The notes under the pieces: generated by a model
Databases searched by the model: none
What the model saw: only the letters and a program-made list of their open reading frames with translations
What the model was told of the DNA's origin: nothing
Assembly: GCA_000827205.1 (NCBI GenBank)
Contig: KN832567.1
Span: forward strand, 661,660 to 725,659
Length of the DNA stretch: 64,000 nucleotides
Direction of reading: 5' to 3'
Source: Plicaturopsis crispa FD-325 SS-3
Taxonomy: Eukaryota > Basidiomycota > Agaricomycetes > Amylocorticiales > Amylocorticiaceae
In this document: one piece after another, positions 48,501-64,000 of the stretch
How the letters are laid out: each line of letters starts with the position of its first letter
Position numbering within the stretch: position 1 is the first letter of the stretch
Position numbers and translations under genes: made by a program

Positions 48501-49086
48501 ATTCATCAACTAGCACTGCTGCCTCTTCTACTAGCACTACCTCTTCATCGAGTAGTGCTGTGTCTTCGTCGACTAACCCAGCATCTACGAGCTCGGCTGC
48601 AGTACCCTCAGGCTCTGTCGCGGTCAGCTTCGTCGTAAGTGCCAAGACTGCGCCTGGCGAGGTACGTGGCACTTTCCATATGGTTATGTATACCCGTAAT
48701 TTGAACGCGAAATCGTGCGACAGGGAATATACCTATCGGGAAGCATTCCGCAGCTAGGAAAGTGGTCAACGTCGTCGTTGGTACGTTTACCCTACTTTTC
48801 AATACTGCGATCTAGTGGGCTTAGCATGCTCTCCAAAGATAACGATGACAGCCGCCAGCTCCACAACCTGGGGCGTTACGGTTAATATACCGAAGTCAAC
48901 TACATTTCAATACAAATTCCTCCGCAAATCGACCTCAGGGACAGTGCGTGTTCTCCTTTATGCATGGTTCGATGGTATTCAGACTGACGGTCGACGGACG
49001 GATAGATTACATGGGAACCTGATCCCAATCGCTCTTACACGACGCCTGCCTCGGGCACGCCCGTCATTAATACTACTTTCAGATAA
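45518..49086 (+). CDS. GH13 alpha-amylase with two C-terminal CBM20 modules
   Basis: The spliced protein hydrolyses alpha-1,4 bonds of starch or glycogen. GH13 landmarks in order are TVIVQMFQWDWVSLAQECTD, EHITGVPWYTDYQPV, DVVWNHM (region I), GFRLDAAKHI (II, nucleophile Asp), CYITQETIYG (III, acid Glu) and FVANHDTER (IV). The HDTER and QMFxW forms resemble animal and actinobacterial amylases, not Aspergillus Taka-amylase (FVENHD-NPRF type). Two CBM20 domains follow, each after a Ser/Thr linker: SLYVAGSIKQLGTW then WETDPNRSNITPASG, and GIYLSGSIPQLGKW then WEPDPNRSYTTPASG. All junctions can be read in frame, about sixteen introns in all; the stop is TAA at 49084. No classic signal peptide is seen. 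The N-terminus depends on an optional intron at 45568-45633. Confidence 0.92.
45568..45633 (+). other. Candidate 66-nt in-frame intron near the amylase N-terminus
   Basis: The segment starts GTGCGT, contains the branch-like TGCTAAT at 45587, and ends TTTTGCAG. Its length is a multiple of three and it has no stop codon, so both spliced and retained forms stay in frame. Retention adds 22 residues including the hydrophobic CVAITTVLIFTY. Confidence 0.55.
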
Positions 49087-49308
49087 TCGCACCGCACAAG
49101 CACCGCAGCATACTGTATCGAATCATCGTCATCGCCAGGGATCATTGTATCGCATAGTCACGGACAAACTGTACTCTTCCTTTCATAGCATGTCGTGAAC
49201 CAATTGATAGTCTTCACGGCGGGGTTTCAGTTTTCAGTCTCAAGCACCAATTAATTATTAGGCTCCTCGTGATGCTCGTACAACTTTTCCGCTACCAAAT
49301 TATCTCAA

Positions 49309-50148: not shown

Positions 50149-51731
50149 CTTGACAGAAAATGCGATTATTTAGATGCGTGAAAGCGTGGTGTAGTAGTCG
50201 TCGTTGAGCTAATAAATAGCTTGAAAAATGGAGATCGAGAGACGTGAAAATAATAAAACAAAGTGAGTGGAAGAAAATCGAAAAATGGGCGCAGCCTGGG
50301 GGAAGAGAAACATAGTGCGTTGGGTTATATACCGGGATGGACGAGCGCGTGTCAGGAAGTCGTCATGCACTGGTCTGCACCACATCCATCTGATGGCCGA
50401 CCGAGGCGACTCCCATGCACCGCTTTCATCGTCTCAACCGTCGCCCTCGCTTTCTTGACGTCGTCTGCTGTCACTTGAACACTGCATGAGCGCGTAACAA
50501 AACGTCCACAATGCCGCCCACATCGTCGAGGTCCAGGAGGAGGAGGTACATGATCCCGGCGTTCATCAACGAGAAACAACTTGGCAACATACGAATCGGA
50601 AGCAAGTTCATGACCGAGCTGCACGATGGGACGCGTTTCAGCTTCGTGGCTCCATTCACGCGCCCACTTATTGACCTGGTGAGCCCATCCGAGTCGTAGG
50701 TGGAGTGCTAGAATCGATATTTTGCTTTCGGATTGCGAGTGGTCTAAAGCAGGCCTAAAGACTAAGCTCGTCGACTGGAGCTGCTGTCGACCCTCATCAC
50801 GACAGCGGCAGACTGTCCAAGGCCATCAATACAGTCGAAGTCGAGCTAGCCAAGTTGAGCGGGTTACAGATAGTCGTGGTATAGGTCAGGGAGAGTCGAG
50901 AAACCGACGAAGTGCACTCGCCACAGTCCTGGAGGTTGCGTAAGTCACAGTGAGCCTCAAGCAAGAGACTCAGTCACTAGTCACCGGCCAGCGACGACTC
51001 GGAGATACCGCAATACGCTGCCATTTCGCTTCCCCTTTCCCGCAAGCGGTTATCGACGAAAAACACTGAGTCGAAGCACCGAGTACTGAAGCTTTAGATC
51101 GTTCTCGCCAAGTTCTCAATCATGTACCGTGCAGGTGCGTAATCACTGTCTTGGCAGCCTGCAGGAGTCTCATGGTGATGTAGGCAAGATGTAGGCAGCG
51201 ATCATCTGTAGAGCGTTGTATACCTCCATCTATACCACGAACTGTGATAAAAATTCCGAGAACCCACCTTCAAGACCGACGATTGATCCCGCCGTGCTGT
51301 CTCTTGGTATGAAAATCAGTCGACGTCGACAACAGTACCACCGTTCTCCAGTTGGCGGTCCCCGTATGGCTATTTGTCCAACTGATCCAGGTGATCCGCT
51401 CATGGTTAGCTTGATAGGCGTTGCAACATCGACGCACTGGTATTCGTATAAAGGCGCGAGATTCTAGCACTCATATTTTCCTTAACGTCCCATCTTCAAC
51501 TTTCTGGGTGTTCACTTCAGCTTACGCACATTTTATTTCACTCTTTTCAGGAAAGGTACTGGTTGGTACGTTGCTGTCTCTCACCGTCATCGCGGTCATC
51601 TCCCAGCCACTGACTCGATTCTGTTCAACAGCCCTCCTTAACGTCCATACATTACACATACCCACTCTCTACGACCCAGCCTCATAATCTCTACGAATCA
51701 TTTCCTTCCCGTCCATTCATTCAATCTCACA
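50149..51731. other. 1.6-kb region without a supported gene
   Basis: Several overlapping frames of 60-90 codons occur on both strands around 50260-50700; none has a domain or a continuous splice model. The right part is the promoter and leader of the repeat-protein gene, with a TATA-like element at 51447. Confidence 0.45.
51447..51453 (+). promoter_or_regulatory. TATA-like element upstream of the repeat-protein gene
   Basis: TATAAAG lies 285 nt before the start codon of the secreted repeat protein. It would imply a leader of about 250 nt, longer than usual, possibly with an intron. Motif-based only. Confidence 0.35.
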
Positions 51732-52827
51732 ATGTTCCCCTCGACATCTCTCCTCGTCCTCGCCCTCGCCGCCGCGCCCGCATTTGCCGCGCCCACACCG
51801 GCTCCTGCCTCCACTGATTCACGCGACTTGAAGGCCACAAACATTCAAGCCGGTGGGGGCCTCCCAATCGGTAGCCTCTCCACGCTAGGCCAATTCGGCT
51901 TGGGTCTCCTAGGACGCGACGACGCGCCCCACCTGAAGGCTACGAACATCCAAGCCGGTGGGGGCCTCCCCATCGGCAGCCTCTCCACGCTAGGCCAGTT
52001 CGGCTTGGGACTCCTCGGACGCGAGCCCGAGCCCGACGCGCCCCACCTGAAGGCGACGAACATCCAGGCCGGCGGAGGTCTCCCAGTCGGTAGCCTCTCC
52101 ACGCTAGGCCAATTCGGCTTGGGACTCCTAGGACGCGACGACGCGCCCCACCTGAAGGCCACGAACATCCAAGCCGGTGGGGGCCTCCCCGTCGGTAGCC
52201 TCTCCACGCTCGGCCAGTTCGGCTTGGGACTCCTGGGACGCGAGCCCGAGCCCGACGCGCCCCACCTGAAGGCGACGAACATCCAGGCCGGCGGAGGTCT
52301 ACCAGTCGGTAGCCTCTCCACGCTCGGCCAATTTGGCTTGGGTCTCCTAGGACGCGACGACGCGCCCCACCTGAAGGCCACCAACATTCAAGCCGGTGGG
52401 GGCCTCCCCGTCGGTAGCCTTTCCCTGCTGGGTCAGTTCGGGTTGGGTCTCCTGGGACGCGAGCTCGAGGAGCTCGAGGCGCGTGACCTGAAGGCCACGA
52501 ACATCCAAGCCGGCGGGGGCCTGCCAATCGGTAGCCTCTCTACGCTGGGCCAGTTCGGGCTGGGTCTCCTAGGACGCGACGATGCGCCCCACCTGAAGGC
52601 CACGAACATCCAAGCCGGCGGGGGCCTCCCAATCGGTAGCCTCTCCACCCTAGGCCAGTTCGGCTTGGGTCTCTTGGGACGCGACATCAACGAAATGTAA
52701 GTCTCCCATTTACGCGTCGAGCTTTGGATCAGTCTGACCGATGGCTCTGCTTGCTTTTATCAGTGAAACTCGGGAGCTTGTCGACTCGCTCGCGCTTGTG
52801 CAGAGGATGATTGACGAGCTTGATTAG
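51732..52827 (+). CDS. Secreted protein of eight near-identical 30-residue repeats
   Basis: The first 20 residues (MFPSTSLLVLALAAAPAFAA) are a clear signal peptide. After a short Pro/Ala/Ser stretch come eight copies of a unit that begins LKATNIQAGGGLP, continues GSLSTLGQ and ends FGLGLLGR. Copies vary mainly at one Ile/Val and one Thr/Leu. Linkers are acidic, DDAPH or EPEPDAPH in alternation, with ELEELEARD once. An intron near 52699-52763 splices INE to a helical, charged C-terminus (ETRELVDSLALVQRMIDELD), stopping at 52825. No cysteines are present, which excludes a hydrophobin. The single Arg after each unit and Lys near its start could be cleavage points, but dibasic Kex2 sites are absent. 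By analogy it could be a repeat peptide precursor or surface-active repellent-type protein. I do not recognise a family. Confidence 0.85.
51828..52682 (+). repeat. Eight tandem coding repeats, 105-117 bp periods
   Basis: Each unit has a 90-bp core plus a linker of 15 bp (DDAPH), 24 bp (EPEPDAPH) or 27 bp (ELEELEARD). Short and long linkers alternate in the first five junctions, suggesting that blocks of two units were duplicated together. Synonymous differences between cores (for example GGTGGGGGC against GGCGGAGGT) also follow this alternation in part. Confidence 0.9.
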
Positions 52828-57886: not shown

Positions 57887-60800
57887 ATGTCCTCGATGTT
57901 TTCCCGCACGCTGGAACGTGGTTCCACTCTCTCAAAACTTATGACCGCGAGTGCGGCGCCTGTCGATCTCGACGGCGCGCGTCCCGTGCCCGACTTGCTG
58001 TCGCGTAGTCTCGATGACATCGAAAAGTTGATGGAGCGCGGGTCGCCCGTTTCTATCAAGGATTTGGTGAATGGCCTTTCAGCTCACTGGATAGTCTCCT
58101 CCAGCTGCTTATATATGCGTCCCGTAGCCGGCGTTCATCGACGCGGTCAAGAACTTAAATGGCATCGGTTTGGACGACCGAAAGTTCCTTGTAGGCTTTC
58201 CCGTATCCGTACATCCTATCGAAGATGAGTTAATCCTGGCTGTAGTTGGAAAAGCTCCTGGTCTTTATGTCCAGAAGCCCCGATGACAGCGAGGTATCCA
58301 CAAAGGTTCAACAGTTTGTAATCGACACCCGTAAGTTACGGTCACGGACGCCCGAAAGCAAGTTTCTTACACGCGCCGTTCATTTCAGTGTACAAGGACC
58401 TCCCCCATCCGCCCAGTGGATATCTCTCTGTGCCAACCCATGCATCTGCTACCTCCATCCAATCTTCGTCGCACGGCGTCAAATATGCATACCGTAGCGC
58501 CGACGGTTCAAACTACAACCCTCTATTCCCATCGCTCGGCAAGGCTGGCTCACCTTACGCGCGATCTGTCCCCTCTACCAGCACCACGCCGCTGTCGGCG
58601 CTCCCCGATGCCGGTCTTGTGTTTGATACCCTGCTCAAGCGGGACCATTTCGAGGCACACCCCGATGGAATCTCAAGTCTCTTTTTTGCATTCGCCGATC
58701 TCGTTATCCACTGCATATTCAACACCAGCCATTCGGACTGGACGATCAACGACACGAGCAGCTATCTGGACCTGAGTGTCCTGTATGGGAACTCCGAAGC
58801 CGACGTCGATAAAGTGAGGAGGAAGGACGGCTCGGGGAAACTTTGGAACGATGTTTTCGCGGATGCGCGGGTGCGGTTCATGCCTCCCGCTGTCTGCGCT
58901 CTGCTTGTACTGTTCAACCGCAACCACAACGTACGTTCACCTCTGCAGACGACTGTATTATGCTGATTTTTTCTTAGTATATTGCACAAAAAATTCGCGA
59001 CATCAATGAACGAGGCAATTTCGACACACCGGGGGTTAAGGACACCATGGCCCAAGACGACGAGATATTCCACCGGTCGCGCCTCGTCAACACCGGGTTT
59101 TTCATGCAGACCATATTGTATGTTTAATCGCGCAATGTTTGATACCACTTGATCACGACCTAATATCTTCCTATGCAGGGGCGACTATGTCGGGGCCATC
59201 CTAGGCTTGGTTCGCGACGGACTAGCGTGGCGGCTCAGGCCACTCGAGGTAAAAATCTTACGTGCTGTCTGAAAGTATTCTTTGTTGACATCGTTCCCAG
59301 ACAATGCGGCAAATGGATCACGAATTTGCGCCTCAGGGCGAAGGGAATGTCGTCAGCTTGGAGTTTAACCTCCTCTATCGGTACACTGTTTTGTGCATAT
59401 CTCAACTGTATCATCACTCTTATTATGCTATCTTAGATGGCATGCCTGCCTGTCCGCTCAGGATGCAGAGTGGACAGAGGCAGAGTTCAAGAAGCTTTTT
59501 GATGGAAAGGATTTTGGTTCTGTAAGTCAACGAACAGTACGAAGCTTGGCACGCTCATCTTTCGCTATGTGCAGGTCGACATCAAGGATTTCGAGAGAGC
59601 AGCGCACAAGTACATGATTCCCGATCCCGACGTCAAGACATGGACGTTCAGCGAGTGAGTTCCCGCCTTCTGCTAGCACAACTTCACTATCAATTCTCAT
59701 GGCACGACGTTCACAGTCTGAAACGAGAGAGCGATGGACGCTTCAAGGATGGGGACCTGGCGAATATCCTCCAAAACGCCACGGAAGCCTCTGCTGGTGC
59801 GTTCAAAGCGCGAGGGATCCCCGAAGCGCTACGCGTTGTGGAGATTCTCGGCATCATGCAGGCTCGCAGCTGGGGAACATGCTCTGTGAGTATCGTATTG
59901 ACTTGCATGTTGCACATCCTCATCTATGTTTTGATTGCAGTTGAACGAGTTCAGGAAATTTATGGGATTGAAGCGTATGTTTCATGTACATACCAGCGCT
60001 CCCCGCTAATATGTTATCTCAGCGTACAAGTCTTTCAAGGAGTGGAATCCCGACCCAGAAATACATGTACGCATCTCCTTGTCTTGTAGGCGGATCCATC
60101 CGTTAACTTCGCGTCCAGACCGCGGCCGCCACCCTCTACCACGACATTGACAACCTCGAGCTGCACGTACGTACCTCCTCTATATCGCACACAGACGCGC
60201 GACATGCTCAACGTGCCCCAGGTTGGCCTACAAGCGGAAGACGCCAAAAAGCCAATGCCCGGCGCGGGCCTCTGTCCCGGGTACACGATCTCGCGCGCCA
60301 TCCTCGCCGACGCCGTCTGCCTCACGCGCGGCGACCGCTTCCTCACCGTGAATTTCACACCCTTCAACCTCACCTCGTGGGGCTACCAGGACTGCCAGTA
60401 CAACACCGCGGACGGCTCGTACGGCGGCATGCTCACGAAGCTGCTCTTCCGCACGCTGCCGGACCACTACCCCGCGCGCTCCGCGTACGCGCACTTTCCC
60501 ATGCTCGTCCCCGCGCGCGCGCGGATGCATTTGAGGAAGCTCGCGAAGGACCCGACGGGGAAGTATATGTGGGAGCGCCCGGGGAAGCCAATGGGGCTGG
60601 TGGAGGTGACGGAGTATGAGGATGTGGTGAGGGTGTTGGCGGACGGGGCGTTTGAGTCGCAGGGCGACGACCGCATGCGTGGGCTGGCGAAGGGCGTGCG
60701 CGTCGAGCGCCAGATGGTGCGTGTTTGCCATTCCTGTGTGCTGTCCGGGCCATTACTTACGCGGAGGATGCGGCTGCTAGGTGCACGAACTGCTGTTCGC

Positions 60801-63781: not shown

Positions 63782-63834
63782 TCTCGAGTCTCGACAGACT
63801 CGGTATCTCGAGTCTCGACAGACTCGGTATCTCG
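63782..63834. repeat. 24-bp tandem repeat, 2.2 units
   Basis: The unit begins TCTCGAGTCTCGACAGA and ends CTCGGTA; copies lie at 63782-63805 and 63806-63829, with TCTCG beyond. The unit contains imperfect palindromes (TCTCGAGTCTCGA). Confidence 0.85.
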
Positions 63835-63856
63835 TTCGATGCCAGCTGTGGACGAT

Positions 63857-63904
63857 CAGGGTGCCCACGCCGAATACGCAGGGTGCCCACGCCGAATACG
63901 CAGG
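63857..63904. repeat. 22-bp tandem repeat, 2.2 units
   Basis: The unit starts CAGGGTGCCCACGCC and ends GAATACG; exact copies lie at 63857-63878 and 63879-63900, followed by CAGG. Confidence 0.9.
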
Positions 63905-63909
63905 CTGCT

Positions 63910-64000
63910 GGGCGCTGTTACACGCGAAGGCGGGCGCTGTTACACGCGAAGGCGGGCGCTGTTACACGCGAAGACGGGCGCTGTTACACGCGAAGGCGGG
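63910..64000. repeat. 22-bp tandem repeat, at least four units, cut by the window end
   Basis: The unit starts GGGCGCTGTTACACG and ends CGAAGGC; copies begin at 63910, 63932, 63954 and 63976, then GGG reaches the window edge. The third copy has one G-to-A change. The array probably continues beyond the window. Confidence 0.9.

What the first reader, a model, noticed from the sequence alone, without database searches (positions are those of the whole stretch)
51732..52827. Secreted protein built of eight near-identical Gly/Leu-rich 30-residue repeats: candidate new peptide or surface-protein system
The frame has a clear signal peptide, eight almost invariant units (LKATNIQAGGGLP then GSLSTLGQ then FGLGLLGR) and acidic variable linkers. 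The core is strongly conserved while the linkers vary, the pattern expected if the core is the functional product, either excised as a peptide or acting as a repeated amphipathic unit. It lacks cysteines (not a hydrophobin) and dibasic Kex2 sites (not a standard Kex2-processed precursor), although Arg-Asp/Glu ends and His-Leu-Lys starts recur. Known analogies are fungal repeat precursors and the Ustilago repellent protein Rep1. I know of no family with this unit.
Basis: partly seen in the sequence, partly recalled or inferred. Interest (0 to 1): 0.8.

Follow-up and report, generated by a model that had tools for sequence, protein, structure and literature searches.

The report
Fungal repeat peptide precursor, altered cleavage sites
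A fungal gene encodes a secreted protein made of eight almost identical 30-residue pieces; a sister gene in the same genome shows it belongs to a known class of precursors that are cut into small peptides, but here the usual double-basic cutting signal has become a single arginine, so it may be cut in an unusual way or no longer cut at all.

Summary
In detail: a secreted 342-aa protein of eight 30-residue units at 51732-52827, one 67-base intron. Between units 21 codons vary only silently and 2 change the residue; pN/pS 0.048. It is not an orphan. The same unnamed fungal genome holds one clear paralogue of nine units; eight end in the classic Kex2 site KR before an acidic spacer. The two share a similar start, the last intron position, the C-tail (16 of 25 identical) and a 5' leader whose exact pattern occurs only there. 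So the window protein descends from the Kex2-processed repeat protein (KEP) class, but every KR is GR (LLGR before Asp/Glu). It most resembles the paralogue's last unit, its only GR-ended one, so the array probably grew from such a unit. Most likely it is still a peptide precursor cut at single arginines by kexin or another protease; the main rival is that cutting was lost and the intact repeat protein works outside the cell. Neither is proved. It lacks the dibasic sites that two published KEP surveys required. New variant of a known kind; moderate interest.

The parts
51477..51523 (+). conserved 5' leader element (47 bases, 39 identical to the paralogue), ahead of the start codon
   Evidence: blastn E 1e-9 against the paralogue's upstream region; the exact pattern GGGTGTTCACTTNNNCTTNC occurs twice in the genome, at these two loci, with 0 control hits
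51549..51567 (+). second short conserved leader stretch (17 of 19 identical); may be a small 5' exon or splice junction
   Evidence: E 0.017; splice reading is inference
51732..51788 (+). signal peptide MFPSTSLLVLALAAAPAFA (read by eye)
   Evidence: sequence; paralogue starts MFSKSLLVFALVATSACAAPTPA
51789..51827 (+). short pro-segment APTPAPASTDSR plus D before unit 1
51828..51917 (+). repeat unit 1 (30 aa), ends LLGR
51918..51932 (+). linker DDAPH
51933..52022 (+). repeat unit 2
52023..52046 (+). linker EPEPDAPH
52047..52136 (+). repeat unit 3
52137..52151 (+). linker DDAPH
52152..52241 (+). repeat unit 4
52242..52265 (+). linker EPEPDAPH
52266..52355 (+). repeat unit 5
52356..52370 (+). linker DDAPH
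52371..52460 (+). repeat unit 6
52461..52487 (+). linker ELEELEARD, close to the paralogue's spacer EFDELEAR
52488..52577 (+). repeat unit 7
52578..52592 (+). linker DDAPH
52593..52682 (+). repeat unit 8
52683..52696 (+). first part of the C-terminal tail (DINEI...)
   Evidence: 16 of 25 tail residues identical to the paralogue
52697..52763 (+). intron (GTAAGT...CAG, 67 bases), same position as the paralogue's last intron
52764..52827 (+). exon 2: rest of the tail (...ETRELVDSLALVQRMIDELD) and stop
   Evidence: a tail search up to E 10 matched these two loci only

Best explanation
It is a secreted precursor of a repeated ~30-residue peptide, a member by descent of the Kex2-processed repeat protein lineage. 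The signal peptide sends it into the secretory pathway. A protease (kexin, or another enzyme that cuts after single arginines) cuts after LLGR, where an acidic residue always follows. That releases up to eight copies of a Gly/Leu-rich peptide which still carries a short acidic head (DDAPH or EPEPDAPH), except where a single Arg also lies ahead of the core (units 1 and 7). Exopeptidases then trim the ends. The peptide probably has a flexible first half and a helical, surface- or membrane-active second half (SLSTLGQFGLGLLG) and acts outside the cell, on the hyphal surface or on neighbours. Shown: gene structure, repeat, selection on the unit, homology to a KR-bearing precursor, presence of a kexin gene and of a DPPIV-type gene. 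Inferred: that cutting happens at GR, which enzyme does it, the peptide's shape and what it does.
For: Paralogue with KR at 8 of 9 unit ends, GR at the ninth. Shared tail, intron position, leader and similar start. Alignment of all 17 units: 7 invariant positions, among them the final Arg. Unit similarity 61 between window unit 1 and the paralogue's last unit, reached by 0 of 5000 shuffles. Purifying selection: pS 0.363, pN 0.0174. All 8 unit ends are GLLGR before D or E; acidic P1' is over-represented at cleaved Kex2 sites (PMC2515848, passages), and an expanded motif LxxR with variable P2 has been used to find Kex2 substrates (PMC8528282, part 1 of 3 read). Some products of mushroom KEPs expressed in Pichia appear to be cut after single Arg (PMC9769878, results part 1). 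Another secreted repeat protein of the genome has P2 = R, K, G, P or S at 11 like junctions, with Arg at P1 in 11 of 11. Kexin gene; DPPIV-type gene.
Against: Any non-basic P2 scores zero in the published Kex2 matrix, where Leu at P4 also scores low, 0.09 (PMC2515848 Table 1). Gly is not among the five alternative P2 residues (R, T, P, E, I) named in PMC8528282. The Arg ahead of the core, present in 9 of 9 paralogue units, is kept ahead of only 2 of 8 window units, as if processing were being lost. The 11-junction protein is not a proven relative (E 0.0045, 28% identity). As to function: six mushroom KEP knockouts showed no phenotype and tested KEP peptides no antibacterial activity (PMC9769878, results part 2). 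No transcript or peptide data were available. The unit model is weak (mean pLDDT 59.5), and the window unit's helical moment (0.36) is lower than that of three paralogue units (0.50-0.60).
Confidence: 0.5

Rival explanations
1. Cutting was lost: the KR to GR change turned a peptide precursor into an uncut, repeat-built surface or cell-wall protein whose Gly/Leu units stack or coat the hypha.
For: No dibasic site at all; P2 Gly is a poor Kex2 site; the front Arg is absent in 6 of 8 units; the best full-length AlphaFold2 model is a beta stack, mean pLDDT 71.0, pTM 0.68; selection on the unit fits this too.
Against: Single-sequence AlphaFold2 is reported to produce unrealistic beta-solenoids for perfect repeats (PMC11795689 abstract) and the other four models scored 42.5-53.5. 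Foldseek found 0 matches at E <= 0.001. With the 17-unit alignment the unit is modelled as a helix, not strands, though at low confidence.
Confidence: 0.33
2. The GR end is an amidation signal: after cutting at Arg, Gly donates a C-terminal amide as in animal neuropeptides.
For: Every unit ends in Gly-Arg, the order used for amidation in animals (recalled).
Against: The amidating monooxygenase family PF01082 was not found in the genome; but the tool's controls also found nothing, so this does not show absence.
Confidence: 0.03
3. Ustiloxin-like (dikaritin) modified peptide precursor with UstYa enzymes.
For: Secreted repeat precursor; the genome does have UstYa genes: six matches on C1, C10 and C4.
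Against: None of the six UstYa matches is on the window's contig C14, and the nearest to the paralogue is about 0.9 Mb away on C1. None of 10 scanned frames near the gene matched a peptide-modifying enzyme (not a full annotation). The core has no Tyr, the residue cyclised in ustiloxin (recalled).
Confidence: 0.03
4. A decaying or neutral repeat, kept by unequal exchange without function.
For: Tandem repeats arise readily; the paralogue keeps the canonical sites.
Against: 21 codons vary silently against 2 with residue change, one-sided binomial p about 7e-10, codons taken as independent; open frame, intron and leader kept.
Confidence: 0.04

Closest known systems
Kex2-processed repeat proteins (KEPs; Le Marquer 2019 PMC6339444, Umemura 2020 PMC7329392, Vogt 2022 PMC9769878; abstracts and named sections read)
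   Same: Secreted, tandem near-identical units, acidic spacers, basic residue at each unit end; the paralogue has the dibasic sites
   Different: The window protein has no dibasic site; the surveys required KR, RR or KK and KR, KK, RK or RR, so it would be missed
Ustilago maydis Rep1 repellents (table and passages of PMC4617103)
   Same: Secreted precursor with tandem repeats (there 34-55 aa, amphipathic)
   Different: Rep1 has Kex2 sites between repeats and a 228-residue last product; here GR and a 25-residue tail; no sequence comparison with Rep1 was made
Ustilago Hum3 (table of PMC4617103)
   Same: Secreted, tandem repeats of similar length (31-36 aa)
   Different: Fourteen of its seventeen repeats are separated by putative Kex2 motifs and a hydrophobin domain follows; here neither
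Candida Ece1, the candidalysin precursor (abstract in listings; passage)
   Same: Multi-peptide secreted precursor; candidalysin has 31 residues
   Different: Named only, no sequence comparison made; function of the present peptide is unknown

Membership tests
KEP (window protein) | Signal peptide for secretion | tested here: inconclusive
   Clear by eye and similar in the paralogue; no prediction program run
KEP (window protein) | At least three near-identical repeats | tested here: met
   Eight units
KEP (window protein) | Repeats separated by KR, RR, KK or RK | tested here: not met
   None in 342 aa
KEP (paralogue) | Repeats separated by dibasic sites | tested here: met
   KR at 8 of 9 unit ends; one further pair, RR, in the tail
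KEP (window protein) | Common descent with a KEP | tested here: met
   Tail, intron, leader, units
KEP (window protein) | Peptides released in vivo | not testable with these tools
   No proteome data
Rep1-type repellent | Kex2 sites between repeats | tested here: not met
   No dibasic site
Rep1-type repellent | Surface-active amyloid-like fibrils on hyphae | not testable with these tools
   Needs experiment
Hydrophobin | Eight conserved cysteines | tested here: not met
   No cysteine in the protein (sequence); two PF01185 matches lie elsewhere, on C16
Ustiloxin-type RiPP | UstYa (DUF3328) genes near the precursor | tested here: not met
   Six matches, none on C14 (searched exon by exon, lower bound)
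Amidated peptide precursor | Peptidylglycine monooxygenase in the genome | tested here: inconclusive
   No PF01082 match, but controls silent too
Known Pfam/NCBIfam domain | Match over cut-off with a real aligned stretch | tested here: not met
   Pfam, exon 1 product: one match just over cut-off (PF25444, 27.3 against 27) with 0 stretches passing on their own, taken as repeat bias; NCBIfam none at E <= 0.01

The most novel reading that the evidence does not exclude
A whole repeat precursor switched its processing code from dibasic KR to monobasic LLGR before Asp/Glu, by amplifying its one GR-ended terminal unit, and is still cut. If so, kexins of this fungus (or a second protease) accept Gly at P2, a hidden set of 'monobasic KEPs' exists that the dibasic-based surveys skip, and the second repeat family of this genome (11 junctions, P2 free, P1 Arg fixed) is part of it.
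Probability: 0.4. Interest if true: 0.6.

Novelty: new variant of a known kind. Interest (0 to 1): 0.42.

Why it matters
KEP catalogues (1193 and 7878 proteins in the two surveys) were built on dibasic sites. A gene whose sister has textbook KEP sites, but which has none itself, gives a natural paired test of what fungal kexins accept at P2. It would show either that the catalogues are incomplete or that peptide precursors can turn into uncut repeat proteins.

Tried and rejected
Rejected: orphan or chance repeat; hydrophobin (no cysteine); ustiloxin-type cluster; Pfam matches of the two repeat proteins, e.g. HIRAN for the paralogue, all with 0 independently passing stretches, taken as artefacts of repeat summation.

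In print: six strings of 7-8 residues from the two proteins gave 0 papers; GLLKR and GLLGR are absent from the main texts of the two survey papers. Supplements could not be searched.

Led nowhere: PDB by sequence (3 sequences at E <= 10, best 0.12); Foldseek; viral contigs (36 pattern matches, 0 confirmed) and prokaryote contigs (64 pattern matches, 0 confirmed), both unlikely places for a fungal gene. No fungal collection is held, so conservation in other species was not tested. C1:2675400-2677500, fetched for a weak match (E 0.224), looked by eye like an unrelated enzyme gene.

Against a general claim: genome patterns for G-x-[LF]-G-R-[DEQH] and G-x-[LF]-K-R-[DEQH] gave 86 and 25 matches against 69 and 36 control matches. 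Without the window gene (8), the C2 gene (4 GR, 1 KR), the paralogue (1 GR, 8 KR) and the two related C14 genes (1 GR each), 71 and 16 remain, not clearly above control. So the motif alone is not enriched in this genome. Three identical hits on C6, two of them 0.9 kb apart, were not followed up.

Full report
What is there. The window is G000:C14:661660-725659 of an unnamed 33.2 Mb genome in 49 contigs. Introns, a kexin gene, hydrophobin and UstYa matches point to a filamentous fungus (inference); the species was not identified. At 51732-52827 on the plus strand lies a two-exon gene: exon 1 51732-52696, intron 52697-52763, exon 2 52764-52827. It encodes 342 aa. After a hydrophobic start read by eye as a signal peptide come eight 30-residue units, LKATNIQAGGGLP[IV]GSLS[TL]LGQFGLGLLGR, with linkers DDAPH (after units 1, 3, 5, 7), EPEPDAPH (2, 4) and ELEELEARD (6), and a 25-residue tail. 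All eight units differ in DNA but only three protein versions exist. The array scores 1335 in Tandem Repeats Finder.

Selection. Between the eight units, 21 of 30 codons vary only silently and 2 change a residue; pS 0.363, pN 0.0174, ratio 0.048; one-sided binomial p about 7e-10, codons taken as independent. The silent differences suggest that the copies are not fresh duplicates and that each has been kept by selection. In the paralogue, the four KR-ended A-type units give 0.045 and the four B-type units 0.117; adding its terminal unit to the A type gives 0.23.

The paralogue. A protein search of the same genome found one clear relative, G000:C1:3465348-3466671 (read as L006). Spliced with a 57-base first intron (a 48-base choice is also in frame) and a 58-base last intron it gives 403 aa and nine units. 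Two unit types alternate irregularly: NVAVTGITTDGGSPFGSIPSKIAEFIGG[LI]LKR and, typically, ALIAGPAEQTGSPFGSIPSKVEQIIGGLLKR. Eight of nine units end in KR followed by an acidic spacer such as EFDELEAR; the ninth ends in GR. This is the layout of a KEP. The window gene shares with it the tail (16 of 25 identical), the last intron at the same place, a similar start (MF, SLLV, AAPTPA), and a 47-base leader element (39 identical, blastn E 1e-9). An exact pattern from that leader occurs twice in the genome, at just these loci, with 0 control hits. A tail search up to E 10 found the same two loci only (the tool scores best candidates only). Over all 17 units seven positions are invariant, including the last Arg.

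How the site changed. The window protein has no dibasic pair at all. The window units score highest against the paralogue's terminal unit (mean 60.4, against 24.4-49.4 for the other eight), which is the one that ends GR. The simplest history, inferred, is that the window array grew from a GR-ended terminal unit.

Is GR cut? For: all eight ends read G-L-L-G-R then Asp or Glu. Cleaved Kex2 sites favour acidic or small residues at P1' and P2' (PMC2515848, passages). P2 is described as variable, with aliphatic P4 preferred, and an LxxR motif has been used to find substrates (PMC8528282, part 1 of 3 read). Some products of mushroom KEPs expressed in Pichia appear to be cut after single Arg (PMC9769878). 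In a third secreted repeat protein of the genome (375 aa as read, C2, L019) eleven comparable junctions have P2 = R (3), K (1), G (5), P (1), S (1), always Arg at P1; apart from residue 2 it has no other Arg. Against: the published matrix gives any non-basic P2 a zero and Leu at P4 0.09; Gly is not among the alternative P2 residues named in PMC8528282; the Arg ahead of the core, in 9 of 9 paralogue units, remains ahead of 2 of 8 window units. The third protein is only weakly similar to the family (E 0.0045), so it is an analogy. Outside these genes the GR pattern is no commoner in the genome than the reversed control (71 matches left against 69). Neither outcome is proved; I put cutting at about 0.5 and an uncut repeat protein at 0.33.

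Machinery and surroundings. One kexin gene was found (C7; P domain match E 2.3e-16; a 454-aa frame of it matches yeast kexin structures at E about 1e-105) and one place with a DPPIV-type gene (C13), which could trim EP-EP-DA dipeptides; whether it does is inference. UstYa matches lie on C1, C10 and C4, none on C14. Of 51 long frames listed for 36-64 kb, 10 were scanned against Pfam; CBM20, Longin, UBX and animal haem peroxidase matches passed their cut-offs, none of them a peptide-modifying enzyme. The gene just downstream on the minus strand (about 53.0-54.6 kb) was read only by eye and not scanned.

Structure. The exon 1 product without an alignment gave a beta stack in the best of five models (mean pLDDT 71.0, others 42.5-53.5). 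[quoted passage not shown] Foldseek: 74 matches at E <= 10, none at 0.001. With the 17 units as alignment, one unit gave a helix at residues 18-32, mean pLDDT 59.5. The best helical moment is 0.36 in the window unit and 0.50-0.60 in three paralogue units. These are hints only.

Function. No experiment bears on it here. For other mushroom KEPs, six knockouts had no visible phenotype and the tested peptides no antibacterial activity (PMC9769878); Rep1 peptides of Ustilago coat hyphae (PMC4617103 table). A surface or signalling role outside the cell is therefore a guess from the class.

Novelty. The class is known; both surveys demanded dibasic sites (KR/RR/KK; KR/KK/RK/RR), so this protein would escape them although its sister meets that rule. 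No paper text held any of six core strings, with the limit that supplements were not searchable. Verdict: new variant of a known kind, moderate interest.

Noticed in passing
L019:2228-3416 (G000:C2, minus strand): Another secreted repeat protein (375 aa as read) with VEGVAGGLLGR-type units; at eleven junctions P2 is R, K, G, P or S while P1 is always Arg. A natural series for testing kexin specificity.
   Followed up: partly
L038:2219-3114 and L039:1735-2603 (G000:C14 near 50 and 75 kb): Two related genes, on opposite strands, with three VEG-type segments ending GR, GR and PR, then a part of about 100 aa; that part of L038 had no Pfam match at E <= 1, that of L039 was not scanned.
   Followed up: partly
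L006:3496-4551: The paralogue's units come in two types in irregular order (A B A B B A A B and a distinct terminal unit), so one precursor could release at least two different peptides.
   Followed up: partly
L041 (G000:C7:896500-902500, minus strand): Kexin gene; by eye it has a prodomain, catalytic domain, P domain and a membrane span. One P-domain match was found in the genome, whereas three kex2 genes are reported for Coprinopsis (PMC9769878).
   Followed up: partly
window 58322-58966: Animal haem peroxidase match (PF03098), possibly part of a fatty-acid oxygenase gene running on to about 61 kb (by eye).
   Followed up: no
window 48758-49198: Starch-binding domain CBM20 match upstream of the repeat gene; a Ser/Thr-rich frame lies just before it.
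   Followed up: no
window 63782-64000: Three short minisatellites in a row (units of 24, 22 and 22 bases, 96-100% matches) run to the window's end.
   Followed up: no
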